The position numbers and the translations under genes were made by a program. A model generated the notes under the pieces. That model had not been told where the DNA came from, made no database searches, and was given only the letters and a program-made list of their open reading frames with translations. A DNA stretch of 24,676 bases from a virus: the IMG/VR virus record IMGVR_UViG_3300028423_000584, positions 1 to 24,676 of that record; one strand, written 5' to 3'. Shown here in pieces: positions 2,746 through 24,676 of the stretch (position 1 is the first letter of the stretch; each line of letters opens with the position of its first letter).

Positions 2746-5700
2746 ATGCCATTAGACTTCCCCAACACCCCGAGCAACGATGCTATCTACACTGCTCCAG
2801 ACGGCAGGCAGTGGCAGTGGGATGGAACTACTTGGAATTCCGTAGAGACCCAAATTGCAACGGGAGCTACTGGCCCTAAAGGCGACCCAGGGCAAGACGG
2901 CGCTATCGGGCCCACAGGGCCAACAGGTCCCCAAGGGACAAATATTAATCTACTCGGCTCTGTTGCAAACGCTGGCAGCCTACCCCTGACAAATAACACA
3001 GTTAATGACGCATATATAACCCAAGACACCGGGGAAATTTATATCTGGGATGGCGGTCAGTGGTCCAATGCCGGAAATATTGTGGGACCACAAGGTGATA
3101 TTGGACCGCAAGGTGATACTGGACCGCAAGGTGATACTGGACCGCAAGGGGACGTAGGACCTCAAGGCGACGAGGGCCCGTTGGGTCCAACCGGTCCTCA
3201 AGGTACAAATATAAACTTGGTAGGCTCAATAGATGACGAAACAGCACTGCAAGGATTAGTAGACGGGGGCGGACTTTCGGATAGCGATGCATATGTAGAT
3301 TTATCCACAGGTGATGTATATGTGTATTCAGCTACCCTCAATAATTTCTTTAATGCTGGCCCTATTAATGGACCCACCGGGCCCCAGGGACCTCAAGGTG
3401 AGGTAGGTCCTCAGGGCGATGCGGGAATACAAGGTGATACGGGGCCGCAAGGTCCGGTAGGACCGACTGGTCCTGAATCGACTGTGGCCGGACCACAAGG
3501 GCCACAAGGTGAGACCGGGCCTCAAGGGGAGCTAGGGCCAACAGGGCCTCAGGGGGCCTCTATTGTTCTTCTTGGTTCTGTACCAACCGTTGCAGATTTG
3601 CCAAGCGCTGATAACTCAATCAATGATGCTTATGTGGTTACTGCACTAGGTGACTTATATGTTTGGGATGGCGTACAGTGGAATTCGGTCGGTCAAATTG
3701 TTGGGCCTACCGGTCCGAAAGGAGACCCTGGCCCCACAGGTCAGACGGGACCAGAAGGGCCAACAGGACCTCAAGGTACAGCCATCAAGCTTTACGGCTC
3801 TGTAATAACAGAAGCAAACCTACCAGCAGCAACCAATGATATTACTTACCAAGTCACCATTGAGACCGGAGCTGATGGCGTCAGGTATCACATGGACGGT
3901 AGGTCCACACCAACACTCTTCCTGAGCCCCGGAGGAACCTACACTTTCAACCAGTTCAATGGCTCTAACTTAAATAATGAGATGTATCTTTCCGAGACAC
4001 CAGGTGGACATCACTCTCTTGGTGGGACTGTTGCAGAAGCAGAATATACAACTGGCGTAACTTATACTGGAACCTCTGGTAGCAACGGATTCTTAGAGTT
4101 TGTTGTACCCGTTGACGCACCCTCAGTTCTCTACTTTGTAAGCAAAAACACACCCAACTATGGTGCTGGCGGCTCACTAGATATAAAAGATAATGCAATA
4201 AACGATGCTTACGTAAATCAAGAGAATGGTGACCTGTACGTTTGGGGTGGCTCAAGCTATACCAATGTTGGACAGATTGTTGGTCCACAAGGAGAAGTTG
4301 GACCGCAGGGGCCCCAAGGTGAAAAAGGTGATAAGGGAGATAAAGGTGACACCGGTAACAGTGGTGGTATCACCTTTGATGTTTCTGTACCGCTTACTTA
4401 TGACTCCTATACAATCAACGGCTCAGCTAACCCGACCTTATCTCTTATTAGAGGTCACAGGTATGTATTTAACTTAGACGCCAGCGTAACAGGATATAAC
4501 TTTAGATTTATGACCGTAGACGGGCCTTACGGACCTGGTTTTGAATACTCCACTGGAATTACTAATGTTGGTGCTGATAGCGGCGAGATTATATTTGAGG
4601 TACCATTTGACGCGCCTGACAACTTGTATTATGTATCAGAAGCTGACTCTACTCTTGCCGGGGATATAGTTGTTTCTAACCTTGGCCCTCAGGGGCCTCA
4701 GGGTCCTCAAGGTGAGCAAGGTATTCAGGGTGTAAGAGGTCCAACAGGTTCAACTGGTTTTCTAGATATTAGTTCTGAAACTTTTGAGACACTTGACCAG
4801 CTTAGGATTGCACATCCAACGGGCGACCCTGGAGACGCTTATTTTGTTGTAGGTGTTCTATATGTGTGGGACACTGACCTTGGAGACTGGAGAGCGACTG
4901 GCGACCTGCTTGGGCCCGAAGGCCCTGAAGGAGAGCGTCAAGCAATTAACTATGCTGTAAATGGTGGATTTGATTTCTGGCAGCGTGGTACCACAGGAGA
5001 TATGAACACTGCTCCATATTATGGCCCAGATAGATTCCAGGTATACCGAGGAGGTGGAGCTGGTGGAGGTACATACTCGCAGCAAACTACCTCTGTAAGT
5101 GGCTTTGAGTATGCGCTCAGGATTCAAAGAGATGCGGGAACCACTAGTACCTCAAGTATGAACATAGCAACTAGCTTGGATTCCAGAGATGTTGCTTCAC
5201 TTACCGGGGGACCCGTAACAGTTTCCTTCTGGGCAAGAGCTGGCGATAATATGTCTTCTACCTCTAAAGCTATAACATTAGAGCTGCTAACAGGAGACGG
5301 CACAAATGGAAATATCCAAACAGGTCTGTCAACAGAGACTGTAGAGTCTTCTTCTGTGTTTAACTTAGGCACAAACTTTGTTAGATTCTCTGCAACTATC
5401 CAAGACCTGTCAGCATTTGTGACACAGTTTGGTATAAAAATTTCTTATGTACCAGTAGGTACCGCAGGAACAAATGATTGGATTGAAGTTACAGGTGTTC
5501 AAATAGAGCAGAGCAACCAGATTTCTCCATTTAGACGTTCTGGCTACACACCTCTATCTGAGTTTGAAAATTGTATACGCTATTACTATGCGTCCCCAGA
5601 TGCCACTTATGGGGGAATGTACAGCGGAGACGTTACTTCAGGAAGTGCCTACTACGCCTTCTACAACTTACCTGTTCCTATGAGAAGAGTACCCGATGTA

Positions 5701-5853
5701 AGTGTTACATCGGTTGGTGCAATTGGATTTAATAACACAGCTGGAAGCACCTCTCAAGAAACCGAAAATTCATTCGTTGAATCTAGAACCGCCACAGGCA
5801 CAAACGCGGGAGCTTTCTACGCCAGTTCTTTCGTGGCAGACGCCGAGCTATAA
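2746..5853 (+). CDS. Large modular collagen-like tail fibre
   Basis: The product has 1035 residues. The N-terminal 35 residues ([20 protein letters not shown]) are typical of phage fibre starts. The middle alternates Gly-X-Y collagen runs with about five copies of a 45-50 residue module of the form [25 protein letters not shown]. Two cupredoxin-like beta-sandwich regions occur, at about 365-480 and 540-645; both lack the Cys-His-Met ligands seen in the first fibre gene. One lies inside a module copy. The C-terminal 270 residues begin [16 protein letters not shown] and contain [17 protein letters not shown] and a C-I-R-Y-Y motif, a carbohydrate-binding-like beta-sandwich common at phage fibre tips. 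It is probably a receptor-binding fibre. The gene is followed after 13 bases by the next fibre gene. Confidence 0.88.
3085..3156 (+). repeat. 18-base tandem repeat in a collagen-like tract
   Basis: Four 18-base units in tandem encode GPQGDx triplet pairs. The second and third (3103-3120, 3121-3138) are identical; the first and fourth differ at a few bases. Unit length is a multiple of three, so copy-number change would keep the frame and alter the length of the fibre shaft. Confidence 0.8.
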
Positions 5854-14424: not shown

Positions 14425-14826
14425 ATGCAAGAAGACCAAATGGCAATATTAACTATTGCATTATCCGTATCGACCGTCTTGGGTGCATGGTTTGCCGTCA
14501 CCAAGCTGTTTAAGCCTTTACAAAAACGAATTAAGTTTTGGATTGAAACCTGGGAAAACTTTATGGTCGATTGGGCAGGAGAAGAAGCCCGCGAAGGTAG
14601 AGACGCTATTCCTGGCGTGATGGAGCGACTAAACAATATTGACGGAGAGCTCAAGCGTAACGGTGGGAGCTCGCTCAAAGACTCTGTCGACCGTATTCAC
14701 GATAGGTTGGACGAAGGAAACAAACAGTTTGCTAAGTTTGATAAGCGAATCTTCCAGATTGAGAAACAACTAAAACTTGTAGAAGACACCACCACTAAAC
14801 CAATTACTAGAAAAAAAGCTTCTTAG
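14425..14826 (+). CDS. Small membrane-anchored coiled-coil protein
   Basis: The product has 133 residues. Residues about 6-25 (AILTIALSVSTVLGAWFAV) form one membrane helix, followed by a basic patch (KLFKPLQKRIKFW), then an acidic region and a long charged helix with heptad character (DSVDRIHDRLDEGNKQFAKF...IFQIEKQLKLV). The segment RLNNIDGELKRNGGSSLKDSVDRI is like actinophage small membrane proteins of the DUF2746-like type, some of which are holin candidates. An in-frame ATG at 14440 is an alternative start. It is the only plus-strand gene in the right half and converges on the WhiB gene with overlapping stops (14823-14826). Function is not proven; lysis or membrane attachment are both possible. 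Confidence 0.75.
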   Translation: MQEDQMAILTIALSVSTVLGAWFAVTKLFKPLQKRIKFWIETWENFMVDWAGEEAREGRDAIPGVMERLNNIDGELKRNGGSSLKDSVDRIHDRLDEGNKQFAKFDKRIFQIEKQLKLVEDTTTKPITRKKAS

Positions 14827-15281
14827 TCGTCACTCTTTTTCTCTTCCTGAGCGTGGTAAGCATCTACTGCATTAGCACTGGTGCGACTCTGCCAGACAAA
14901 CTTACACTCAGTGCAAAAAACAACCTTCATTGTTGACCAGCGTCCACCCTCAGGCCTATCAACAACCTTAGTTTGCAGATTCTCTGTTTTAGTAGCGCAC
15001 CCGGGGCACAGGGGAAATCGTTTGTGACGCATTTCCTGTCCTGCCCAATTAACAGACAAGGTTCTTCTAAGTTTCTTAGGAGTTAATCCTCCCCAAATAC
15101 CCCATATTTGCTTGTTATTAAGTGCCCATTTAGCACAGTCTCTGCGGATGGGACATTGTTGACAAAGTTTTAGTGCTGGATACTGTTGAGAAGGCTTGTT
15201 TGCGTAAAAGTTTTCTGAATACTTTAAATTCTCTGGCTTTGCACATTCAGCATCTTCATGCCATTCGGGAGTTTCCCACAT
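14823..15281 (-). CDS. whiB: WhiB-like transcription factor with C-terminal zinc ribbon
   Basis: The product has 152 residues. Cys13, Cys40, Cys43 and Cys49 give the WhiB pattern C-xn-C-x2-C-x5-C that binds a 4Fe-4S cluster, and IWGIWGG (59-65) followed by the basic TPKKLRR is the family's beta-turn and DNA-contact signature. Beyond a typical Wbl length, residues 92-126 add two CxxC pairs (Cys92/95, Cys123/126), a zinc ribbon. Wbl proteins act with the host sigma factor, and phage versions such as TM4 WhiBTM4 can interfere with host WhiB2. The gene ends the minus-strand operon. A GGTGA element six bases before the ATG serves as ribosome site and lies partly inside a hairpin. Confidence 0.92.
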   Translation of the reverse strand: MWETPEWHEDAECAKPENLKYSENFYANKPSQQYPALKLCQQCPIRRDCAKWALNNKQIWGIWGGLTPKKLRRTLSVNWAGQEMRHKRFPLCPGCATKTENLQTKVVDRPEGGRWSTMKVVFCTECKFVWQSRTSANAVDAYHAQEEKKSDD

Positions 15282-21468: not shown

Positions 21469-21887
21469 TTATGAAAGTAAGCCTACAGGTTTCCAACCTG
21501 TTTTGACAAGTCTTAACAGGGCGTGTCGGATTGCATCTAATGCGTGTCCTTCCCCGCCTCGGTGCCAGTACTCTAGCTTCTTAAGAGCTTCGTTAGGAAA
21601 AATGTTTTTTGCGTCCGCTGGCTTTTGTAGGAAAATTTCTTGGGGGTTCCTATTAAAGTCCAACATAAGTTGCTTAAGTACACCTATCTGCTCCAGAGAG
21701 TAAGGGGCTTGGGTATTTCTAACTGTCTGCTGGTTAATTTAGCCAAAATCTCCCTTATGGGCCCAGCAAACTCTTCCTGTGTAACTTCAACAGACAGCTC
21801 CAAAACAGGCTCAGAATCGCTTTCACGGCTTATGAGAGCAATCCCTGAGGCCTTCCCTGGGTCAACCGCCAATACTATTTGCTTCAT
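21469..21887 (-). pseudogene. RuvC-like Holliday junction resolvase, broken by internal deletion
   Basis: The N-terminal piece (21684-21887) gives MKQIVLAVDPGKASGIALIS, the first catalytic Asp motif of the RuvC/RNase-H fold, running to REILAKL. It then goes out of frame to a TAG. The rest is in another frame, open from 21738: INQQTVRNTQAPYSLEQIGVLKQLM, then QKPADAKNIFPNEAL and WHRGGEGHALDAIRHALL, which holds the final Asp/His motif. In intact actinophage homologues about a dozen residues with a second catalytic Glu (VVCERF-like) lie between these parts; they are absent. A frame-changing deletion of a few tens of bases near 21738-21750 is inferred. The start is coupled to the polymerase stop (TAATG). 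Confidence 0.8.
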
Positions 21888-22360
21888 TAGTATTTAGACC
21901 CCCAATTCTCTAGAGGGCCGTCAGCATCTGCCGTTAGTGGCACTGCCCACCCTTGAGTTGTCGTCATACATTCTTTGACAATTTGCTTAATATCTTCAGC
22001 ATCTTTTTTAGGTGCACTAAGCACAATCTCGTCATGCACGGGCACGATTAGGTTTTCTGTGAGGTCGGCTTGGTCAAGTTTTATTAAGTTGGACTTAAAT
22101 ACTTCAGCCGCACCACCTTGAATCAAATAGTTAACTAGCCTGTAAACCGCATCTTCTTCTGTTGGGATACGTCTGCCAGTCCAAGTCTTTACGTATGCTA
22201 CTCCCTCAGAACCTAACCGCTCCATGCCTTGCTGCTCTATTTTCTTTTGGAACCTGGTCATACCAGGGAACCGCTTGTCGAATGCATTGGAAACATCACG
22301 CATCTGTGGTTCTGGCACCCCCGCTGTAAGTGCCTGCAAAAGGGTCAGAGCCTTCAGCAT
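21887..22360 (-). CDS. polA: DNA polymerase A, C-terminal fragment (motif C)
   Basis: The 157-codon frame contains LTAGVPEPQMRDVSNAFDKRFPGM, a fingers/palm helix, WTGRRIPTEEDAVYRLVNYLIQGGAAEVFKSNL and motif C IVPVHDEIVLSAP with its catalytic Asp. The true continuity with the preceding fragment is at about 22320-22345, so the first dozen codons here are probably out-of-frame sequence, and a separate start is unlikely to be real. Motif B (Lys and Tyr-Gly of the O helix), expected immediately before LTAGV, is missing. It ends in TAA overlapping the resolvase ATG. Confidence 0.85.
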   Translation of the reverse strand: MLKALTLLQALTAGVPEPQMRDVSNAFDKRFPGMTRFQKKIEQQGMERLGSEGVAYVKTWTGRRIPTEEDAVYRLVNYLIQGGAAEVFKSNLIKLDQADLTENLIVPVHDEIVLSAPKKDAEDIKQIVKECMTTTQGWAVPLTADADGPLENWGSKY

Positions 22361-22904
22361 CAGCTCTTAGGAACAGCTGAATCAAGTTGGGGTCCTGGGA
22401 CAGGTCTGCGAACATACGGAACTCAACCTGGTCAAGGTCAGAGGTAATTATGACAGAATCATCATCTTTGGGTAGGAACGCACGTCGCACGGTATCACTA
22501 CCTTTTGGGAGAGTCTGCAAAGCAGGATTTCGTATAGACATTCGACCAGTTCTTGCACCCATCGTCATAATGGATGGGTGAAGTAGTCCATTTTCGTTAT
22601 CCTCAATAAAATTTAAAAAGTATGTCCCAGCTAATTTATCAGCTTTGCGCTGCTCAAGCATCATGTTTGCAAGCTGCTTAACCTCTTCAGAGCCTTCGAT
22701 TGTAAACAACTTAAGCTGGTCAGCAGTGAGCGAAGCTCTCCCGGTTGGAGTAAACGATGTTATCTCGGCACCTAGTTGATTCTGAAACAGGTTAGCCATT
22801 TGAGGACCACTTGTAACAGAGGCACCGTAAGTCTCTTTTACCCAAGACTTAACTTGTTCCGTGTATTGAATAAGCTCGTCATACTTCTTCTGCATAAGGG
22901 GCAT
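22296..22904 (-). CDS. polA: DNA polymerase A, middle fragment (thumb and palm motif A)
   Basis: The frame reads KKYDELIQYTEQVKSWVKE (thumb), SFTPTGRASLTADQL, RKADKLAGTYFLNFI, HPSIMTMGARTGRMSIRNPALQTLPKG and motif A VIITSDLDQVEFRMFADLSQDPNLI with the catalytic Asp and the E-x-R. After GSDPF the frame leaves the family, ending TYSGGARTTDA. The real polymerase frame resumes in the C-terminal fragment. The ATG 22904 is only the first Met after the upstream frame break; it has no ribosome site worth noting. Confidence 0.87.
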   Translation of the reverse strand: MPLMQKKYDELIQYTEQVKSWVKETYGASVTSGPQMANLFQNQLGAEITSFTPTGRASLTADQLKLFTIEGSEEVKQLANMMLEQRKADKLAGTYFLNFIEDNENGLLHPSIMTMGARTGRMSIRNPALQTLPKGSDTVRRAFLPKDDDSVIITSDLDQVEFRMFADLSQDPNLIQLFLRADAEGSDPFAGTYSGGARTTDA

Positions 22905-23520
22905 GTAGCATGCCTCCTGGCTTAACTAAAGGCCAAAAGTGCTCGAACAGACGCATAGTGAGAATAGTGTCCAGAGCACCATAGGCCCAATAAGGCTCAA
23001 AGTTGACAGGGATGGTTCCCCAGGTCCAGCCGTTTTCTCGCTTTGCCGTGTCTAGACCGTCCTGCATCATGGCAGCATTAGCATCTACGTATTTGCTTGC
23101 AAGGCCCTTCAGTTTTGCTGAATCCGAAGGATTTATAACTTGAGACATAATCATGGTGTCATGTGCATTGTGCCAAGGCAGCTCCCATTCGCTTTGCAGC
23201 TCAAACCACTGTGCCTCAAAAGCAATGTTGTGAAATATGACTAAACCGTCATATTTGTTCATCCCTTGATAAAAAACGCCTTTCCAAGCATCCCAAGGAA
23301 TTGACCAGCCAGTCATACCATCGCCTACCTGAACTAAGCGAATTTGACCTTTTCTTGCATTAAGAGCGTCTCGTCTGTAGTCGCCGTCAGGAAGCTCGCC
23401 TGTTTCAATGTCTACAGCAACAGCATTGTGCGGGCGCCGCTCACTCAGCCAGGATAGAAAAGCCTGTGCTTCTTCCAAGTTGTCGACAAAGCGAACTTGG
23501 ATGCCTGATAAATCTGCCAT
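22879..23520 (-). CDS. polA: DNA polymerase A, N-terminal 3'-5' exonuclease fragment
   Basis: The 213-residue product has Exo I VAVDIETGELPD (Asp37, Glu39), Exo II VIFHNIAFEAQWF and Exo III YWAYGALDTILTMRLFEHF, the proofreading domain of phage Pol I-like enzymes. After KPGGMLHAPY the frame ends (AEEV stop), while family members continue through about 25 more residues into the thumb. The match resumes in another frame at KKYDELI. The start ATG 23520 with AGAGGA is the genuine start of the polymerase gene. Exonuclease alone could be folded, but the downstream parts suggest a damaged single gene. Confidence 0.88.
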   Translation of the reverse strand: MADLSGIQVRFVDNLEEAQAFLSWLSERRPHNAVAVDIETGELPDGDYRRDALNARKGQIRLVQVGDGMTGWSIPWDAWKGVFYQGMNKYDGLVIFHNIAFEAQWFELQSEWELPWHNAHDTMIMSQVINPSDSAKLKGLASKYVDANAAMMQDGLDTAKRENGWTWGTIPVNFEPYWAYGALDTILTMRLFEHFWPLVKPGGMLHAPYAEEV

Positions 23521-23533
23521 GTTCCTCTACAAA

Positions 23534-23869
23534 TTATGGAATGATTTCATAATTGTAGATTGCAGCTAAACGATATGTTTCCGGGAAAACTAATGTTTCT
23601 AAGTCTGAGTAGCACAATTCACAAGCGGTGGCGCTTGTAGAAAGTTCGGAGGCAGGTGCATCTTTTAAATTATACTTATTAACTAGCTCGCACGTGGGTC
23701 CATGAAAAATTAAGGAAACGCCGATACGAGACAATATATATGAGCCACTCTCTGTACGATAAAGTTTAAATTCTATCCACCTAACAGAGTCTTTCCTTTC
23801 AGAAGTAGATTCGGCTAAGAGGGTGCCCTCGAACTGTAAAGTTCTTGAAGAATCTTTTACGGTATGCAT
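23534..23869 (-). CDS. Hypothetical protein, 111 residues
   Basis: The product is beta-rich: RKDSVRWIEFKLYRTESGSYILSRIGVSLIFH, followed by a Cys-containing region (GPTCELVNKYNL... TACELCYSDLETLVFPETYRLAAIYNYE). The pattern W-x-E-F-x-L-Y-R-T-x-x-G-x-Y-I-L is shared by small actinobacterial and actinophage proteins of unknown role, as far as I can judge by eye. The ATG overlaps the stop of the tail-fibre gene (TAATG). The polymerase starts 13 bases after its stop, so all three are likely on one transcript. Confidence 0.65.
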   Translation of the reverse strand: MHTVKDSSRTLQFEGTLLAESTSERKDSVRWIEFKLYRTESGSYILSRIGVSLIFHGPTCELVNKYNLKDAPASELSTSATACELCYSDLETLVFPETYRLAAIYNYEIIP

Positions 23870-24676
23870 TACGAGCCACCTTCCAATTCTTTTAATCTTG
23901 CTGATAGCTCTTGTACCGATTTTATTAAACTAGGTATTAACTGAATATAGTCAATGCTTTTAACAGTATCTTTGTCTACAGACAATCCTTTTAAAATAAG
24001 AAGCTTTCTCTTCCCCTACCAATGACGTTGAAATCGCGCCGTGATTTTGTAAAACTTGCTCTAAGTCTTGGGCCAATAGCCCGTAGCTAATTCCCGCATC
24101 ATCTGCCTGAGAATTTAACCTATATTTAACGGGGTTCAGAGAATTAACAAAGCTTAAACCCAAGTCTGTGTCTTCTATATCTTTTTTTAAATCTTTATCT
24201 GAAGGCGTTCCACTGCTGTCATAGAGTACCCCGCCTTCAGTGGTCAACACATATCTGCTACCCACAAAGTGTTTAAGAGTGTCTGACTGAATAGTGCCAT
24301 CAACAGTTAGGTCGTCATCAATTTGAACATCTCGATGAAACTTAGTATTTTTTCTAATATCTAAGTTAAATGAGTTAAGGTCAATAGCATCGCTTCCGCC
24401 GACTCCCCCTGTGTTTAGCGTAACCCTTGTGTTGTCTTCAAATTGAAGAGAAGCGTCCCCGTTACCTATGTAGAACATCCGGAAAAAGGTTCTAAGCTCG
24501 CCCACAAAACGGCCCCCAGAATCATAAAACACAATCTTATTCCTGAGACCCGAACGTTCTGTGCCGGTCCTTATTTCTATCCTCTCGCCCGACTGAGAAG
24601 TCTTAAGAGTACCGGACCTGATATTGTCAGCATTTAAGTTAGAAACTGTTATTTTGCTAGCGTCAATTGTTCCACC
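23869..24676 (-). CDS. Tail fibre with S74 intramolecular chaperone domain (5' partial, frameshifted)
   Basis: The frame is open to the right edge (GGTIDASKITVSNLNADNIRSGTLK...), so the true start is outside the window. This opening repeat is typical of tail-tip or fibre proteins. The C-terminal S74/ICA domain reads SDKDLKKDIEDTDLGLSFVNSLNPVKYRLN and GISYGLLAQDLEQVL. Such domains trimerise the fibre and cut themselves off. After GEEKASY the frame runs off to a stop at 23960. Skipping one base at the TTTTAAAA run (23989-23996) restores GLSVDKDTVKSIDYIQLIPS and the expected final coiled coil, ending at TAA 23869. It is a structural gene lying directly upstream of the polymerase gene. Confidence 0.87.

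What the first reader, a model, noticed from the sequence alone, without database searches (positions are those of the whole stretch)
21469..23520. Three frame-changing internal deletions packed into the polymerase-resolvase region
Within about 1.2 kb, near 21740, 22345 and 22890, family-typical protein sequence stops in one frame and resumes in another with a stretch missing: about a dozen residues in the resolvase, about 40 in the polymerase palm and about 25 before the thumb. Everything between is well conserved, so the genes were intact recently. Single-base sequencing error cannot explain missing segments. Possible causes are recent decay, assembly collapse of strain variants, or an unknown process that removes or supplies these parts.
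Basis: partly seen in the sequence, partly recalled or inferred. Interest (0 to 1): 0.75.

Follow-up and report, generated by a model that had tools for sequence, protein, structure and literature searches.

The report
Phage polymerase genes with missing pieces
Near one end of this environmental phage sequence at least four short stretches (37 to 135 bases) of the DNA polymerase, resolvase and a small neighbouring gene are missing although every relative examined that spans them has them, which is most easily explained by an imperfect assembly of thinly sequenced DNA rather than by new biology.

Summary
Against the closest relative (L002, polymerase about 89% identical) the window lacks 37 bp in the RuvC-like resolvase (junction 21741/21740), 113 bp in the polymerase (22338/22337) and 74 bp between exonuclease and thumb (22893/22892); each changes frame. 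All lie in the last 3 kb of the 24.7-kb contig, 430-680 bp apart; the rest, where homologues cover it, shows no comparable break. No relative shares them: 95 polymerases and 106 resolvases are full length in one frame. The losses remove motif B (O-helix) and the presumed RuvC Glu, so no recoding could restore activity, and the parts are not elsewhere in the window. Retained pieces have no stops and low dN. Junctions are nearly blunt, without repeats, hairpins or preference for conserved sites. This fits fragments from thin coverage joined without the bases between them. Real, very recent decay is the main rival; only the reads can decide. Low interest.

The parts
21740..21741 (-). Junction D3: 37 bp missing in the RuvC-like resolvase (L002 residues about DYDELDVVCERFL, with the invariant Glu); frame changes
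22337..22338 (-). Junction D2: 113 bp missing in the polymerase (38 aa including motif B, KRRALIKGVVYGRLYG); frame changes
22892..22893 (-). Junction D1: 74 bp missing between the exonuclease and polymerase domains (ELEMNTRRVATQMELNGARVDLDYS in L002); frame changes
23567..23572 (-). Junction D4 (new): 135 bp missing in frame in the small gene 23534-23869, exact point uncertain by a few bases
23989..23996 (-). Probable fifth break: TTTTAAAA at which the S74-domain tail gene changes frame (one extra base or a loss of a few)
   Evidence: relatives too distant to size it
22879..23520 (-). Piece with the 3'-5' exonuclease domain (PF01612)
22296..22904 (-). Piece with the thumb and the motif A part of the polymerase domain (PF00476 positions 7-185)
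21887..22360 (-). Piece with the C-terminal part of the polymerase domain, motif C (PF00476 positions 230-379)
21472..21889 (-). RuvC-like resolvase gene, in two frames around D3

Best explanation
The missing segments are most likely a product of sequencing and assembly, not of the phage. The last 3 kb of the contig look like five fragments of about 430-680 bp, each correct and in the right order, set end to end with the bases between them (37, 113, 74, 135 and perhaps a few) left out. A thinly covered region at the contig end, bridged by read pairs and closed without gap letters or on trivial overlaps, would give this. Shown: positions, sizes, intact genes in relatives, constraint on the pieces, near-blunt joins, clustering at one end. 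Inferred: thin coverage and the joining step.
For: Four sure losses and one probable indel lie in the last 3 kb and no comparable break in the rest that homologues cover. No relative is broken there: 95 polymerases and 106 resolvases whole. The joined forms of D1 and D2 were found in no other viral contig. Retained pieces have no stops in about 680 codons and dN 0.09-0.15. Joins are nearly blunt, without direct repeats in the stand-in L002. Losses ignore conservation (percentiles 78, 62, 23) and run across gene boundaries. A few other contigs of the collection carry single similar losses (L150, L031). Local assembly errors and scaffold gaps that spoil genes are documented for metagenomes (PMC7111523).
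Against: No reads or coverage data were available. Scaffold gaps normally appear as runs of N, and none occur in the window or in 2.09 Mb of fetched loci, so a step that drops N or joins on trivial overlaps has to be assumed. Such losses are rare in the collection.
Confidence: 0.77

Rival explanations
1. Real and very recent decay: a defective phage genome, or a deletion-carrying subpopulation helped by intact phages, lost several segments of its replication block.
For: The losses destroy the polymerase and resolvase; one gene block is affected while others are intact.
Against: No stop codon and low dN in the retained parts, although four deletions have accumulated; no direct repeats at the joins; the affected region also covers a small gene and probably the tail gene and coincides with the contig end.
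Confidence: 0.18
2. Collapse of co-occurring strain variants in the assembly graph, in which paths skipped strain-specific stretches.
For: The phage group is diverse and common in freshwater-type contigs.
Against: Skipping needs shared sequence at both ends of a missing stretch; none is seen beyond about four bases; the segments are conserved parts of the genes, not strain-specific ones.
Confidence: 0.04
3. A programmed process (recoding, trans-splicing, parts supplied from elsewhere) restores the proteins.
For: None direct; frames are open and conserved on both sides of each junction.
Against: Recoding cannot create residues that are not encoded; the parts are not in the window; relatives encode the genes whole.
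Confidence: 0.01

Closest known systems
Local assembly errors and scaffold gaps in metagenome assemblies (Chen et al. 2020, PMC7111523)
   Same: Incorrect or incomplete protein-coding sequence at points without read support, several per genome
   Different: Here the gaps are unmarked, no N, and at least four lie within about 2 kb; read support could not be tested
Polymerase and resolvase of Actinomycetia phage DSL-LC01 (OQ999401) and contig IMGVR_UViG_3300026094_000022 (L002)
   Same: Same gene order polymerase, RuvC-like resolvase, helicase, nuclease, RecA-like recombinase; L002 polymerase about 89% identical
   Different: Both genes whole and in one frame
Phage pseudogenes from neutral decay
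   Same: Frame-changing deletions in once constrained genes
   Different: No stops and no rise of dN in the retained parts

Membership tests
Family A DNA polymerase (PF00476 with PF01612) | 3'-5' exonuclease domain, and motifs A and C of the polymerase domain | tested here: met
   Pfam matches on the three pieces; motif A (SDLDQVEFR) and motif C (HDE) read in the pieces and aligned through L002 to Klenow
Family A DNA polymerase (PF00476 with PF01612) | Motif B (O-helix R...K......YG) | tested here: not met
   Present and invariant in relatives, absent from the window: lies inside the 113-bp loss
RuvC-like resolvase | Acidic residues of the RNase H-like fold (N-terminal Asp, middle Glu, C-terminal Asp) | tested here: not met
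   The AVDPGK Asp and the HALDAIRHAL Asp are kept; the Glu of CERF, found in all relatives compared, is lost. That these are the catalytic residues is from general knowledge of RuvC
Pseudogene by neutral decay | Relaxed constraint: stops and raised dN in the remaining parts | tested here: not met
   No stops in about 680 codons, dN 0.09-0.15 against L002 with dS saturated in three of five pieces; very recent decay would not show
Assembly artefact | Junctions without perfect read support | not testable with these tools
   No reads available
Assembly artefact | Junctions absent from independent sequences of relatives | tested here: met
   no same-species contig was available

The most novel reading that the evidence does not exclude
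A real phage population carries at least four small deletions in and next to its replication genes and persists as a helper-dependent deletion mutant, so that the polymerase and resolvase are supplied in trans in nature.
Probability: 0.05. Interest if true: 0.55.

Novelty: not a real feature. Interest (0 to 1): 0.12.

Why it matters
As a likely artefact it matters for users of viral contig collections: unmarked losses of 30-200 bp make intact genes look broken or split, and a simple scan against relatives exposes them. If real, it would be a helper-dependent phage genome caught very early in decay.

Tried and rejected
Missing parts encoded elsewhere in the window: no convincing hit. The joined D1 and D2 sequences in other viral contigs: none; a same-species contig with identical flanks: only L002's contig. 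Hairpins at the junctions: no excess. Losses aimed at conserved sites, such as old intron or intein sites: percentiles 78, 62 and 23, and no relative has these genes split by insertions. Sizes 37, 74, 113 as multiples of 37: dropped, because the sizes depend on the relative (74 or 86; 37 or 40) and the fourth is 135. Host genome collection searched with the helicase: nothing. Close S74 relatives to settle the fifth break: none. A search of viral contigs for a 19-base intergenic match gave eight other contigs that I did not examine.

Full report
Observation. The window is a whole viral record of 24,676 bases. On the minus strand, 23520-21472 encodes a family A DNA polymerase followed by a RuvC-like resolvase. 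tblastn with proteins of related loci finds the polymerase in three pieces and the resolvase in two, each in another frame. Against the closest relative, L002, the DNA aligns between the junctions and then skips 74 bases (22893/22892), 113 bases (22338/22337) and 37 bases (21741/21740). The middle loss removes KRRALIKGVVYGRLYG, aligned to motif B of Klenow; the resolvase loss removes the Glu of CERF, found in all relatives compared.

More than was reported. The gene beside the polymerase (23534-23869) is 111 aa here but about 156-162 aa in most relatives; 135 bases are absent, in frame, at about 23570. The S74-domain tail gene next to it changes frame at the TTTTAAAA stretch 23989-23996; relatives are too distant to say whether this is one added base or a loss of a few. 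So four sure losses and one probable indel lie 430-680 bases apart, all in the last 3 kb. A scan of the rest of the window for frame changes and for gaps of five or more residues found only length differences that look like ordinary variable linkers. Most of the first 2 kb and a few short stretches have no relatives among the loci and could not be tested.

Controls. Among the other loci holding the genes, 95 polymerases and 106 resolvases are full length in one frame and none is split. The complete-genome record of phage DSL-LC01 lists both genes whole. In about 1.5 Mb of relative sequence covered by reference proteins I found two other frame-changing losses of 20 or more bases: L031 (32 bp) and L150 (about 197 bp); overlapping loci of the same contigs inflate that denominator. 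At that rate three such losses within 2 kb by independent chance have a probability of about 3e-9, so one local cause is needed whatever its nature.

State of the pieces. The retained pieces are 80-89% identical in protein to L002, have no internal stop, and dN is 0.09-0.15; dS is saturated in three of five pieces. Four deletions without one nonsense change is not what slow neutral decay usually leaves. With L002 as a stand-in the ends of the missing segments carry no direct repeats; in the window at most about four bases at a junction could belong to either side (my reading). Hairpin potential at the junctions is ordinary. The missing segments are not unusually conserved and do not recur in the window.

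Explanation. The pattern is that of short correct fragments laid end to end with the bases between them missing: thin coverage at the contig end, bridged and closed without marking the gaps. That the region was thinly covered is inference. None of 2.09 Mb of fetched loci contains an N, which is compatible with N-free contigs or with gap letters being lost, and cannot tell them apart. Local assembly errors and scaffold gaps that spoil protein-coding genes in metagenome assemblies are documented (PMC7111523). A real, very recent set of deletions in a helper-dependent or dying genome is the main rival and cannot be excluded without reads. A process that supplies the missing parts is not supported: recoding cannot create residues that are not encoded, and presumed catalytic residues are among those lost.

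Verdict. Observation confirmed and extended; most likely not a biological feature; low interest.

Noticed in passing
   Followed up: yes
23989-23996: Frame change in the C-terminal S74 chaperone domain of the tail gene at a TTTTAAAA stretch.
   Followed up: partly
L150 around 5885; L031 around 4076: Other viral contigs with a single frame-changing loss (about 197 bp in a primase-polymerase gene; 32 bp in the small gene beside the polymerase).
   Followed up: partly
1069-2658: A subtilase (Peptidase_S8, E 1.7e-30) encoded between collagen-like tail genes of a phage.
   Followed up: no
1-1056 and 2746-5853: Collagen-like tail proteins (Pfam Collagen in the second) that by eye also hold cupredoxin-like stretches, one ending in CQIHSTM as in copper sites; not tested.
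   Followed up: no
14823-15281: A WhiB-family transcription factor gene (PF02467), in keeping with an actinobacterial host.
   Followed up: no
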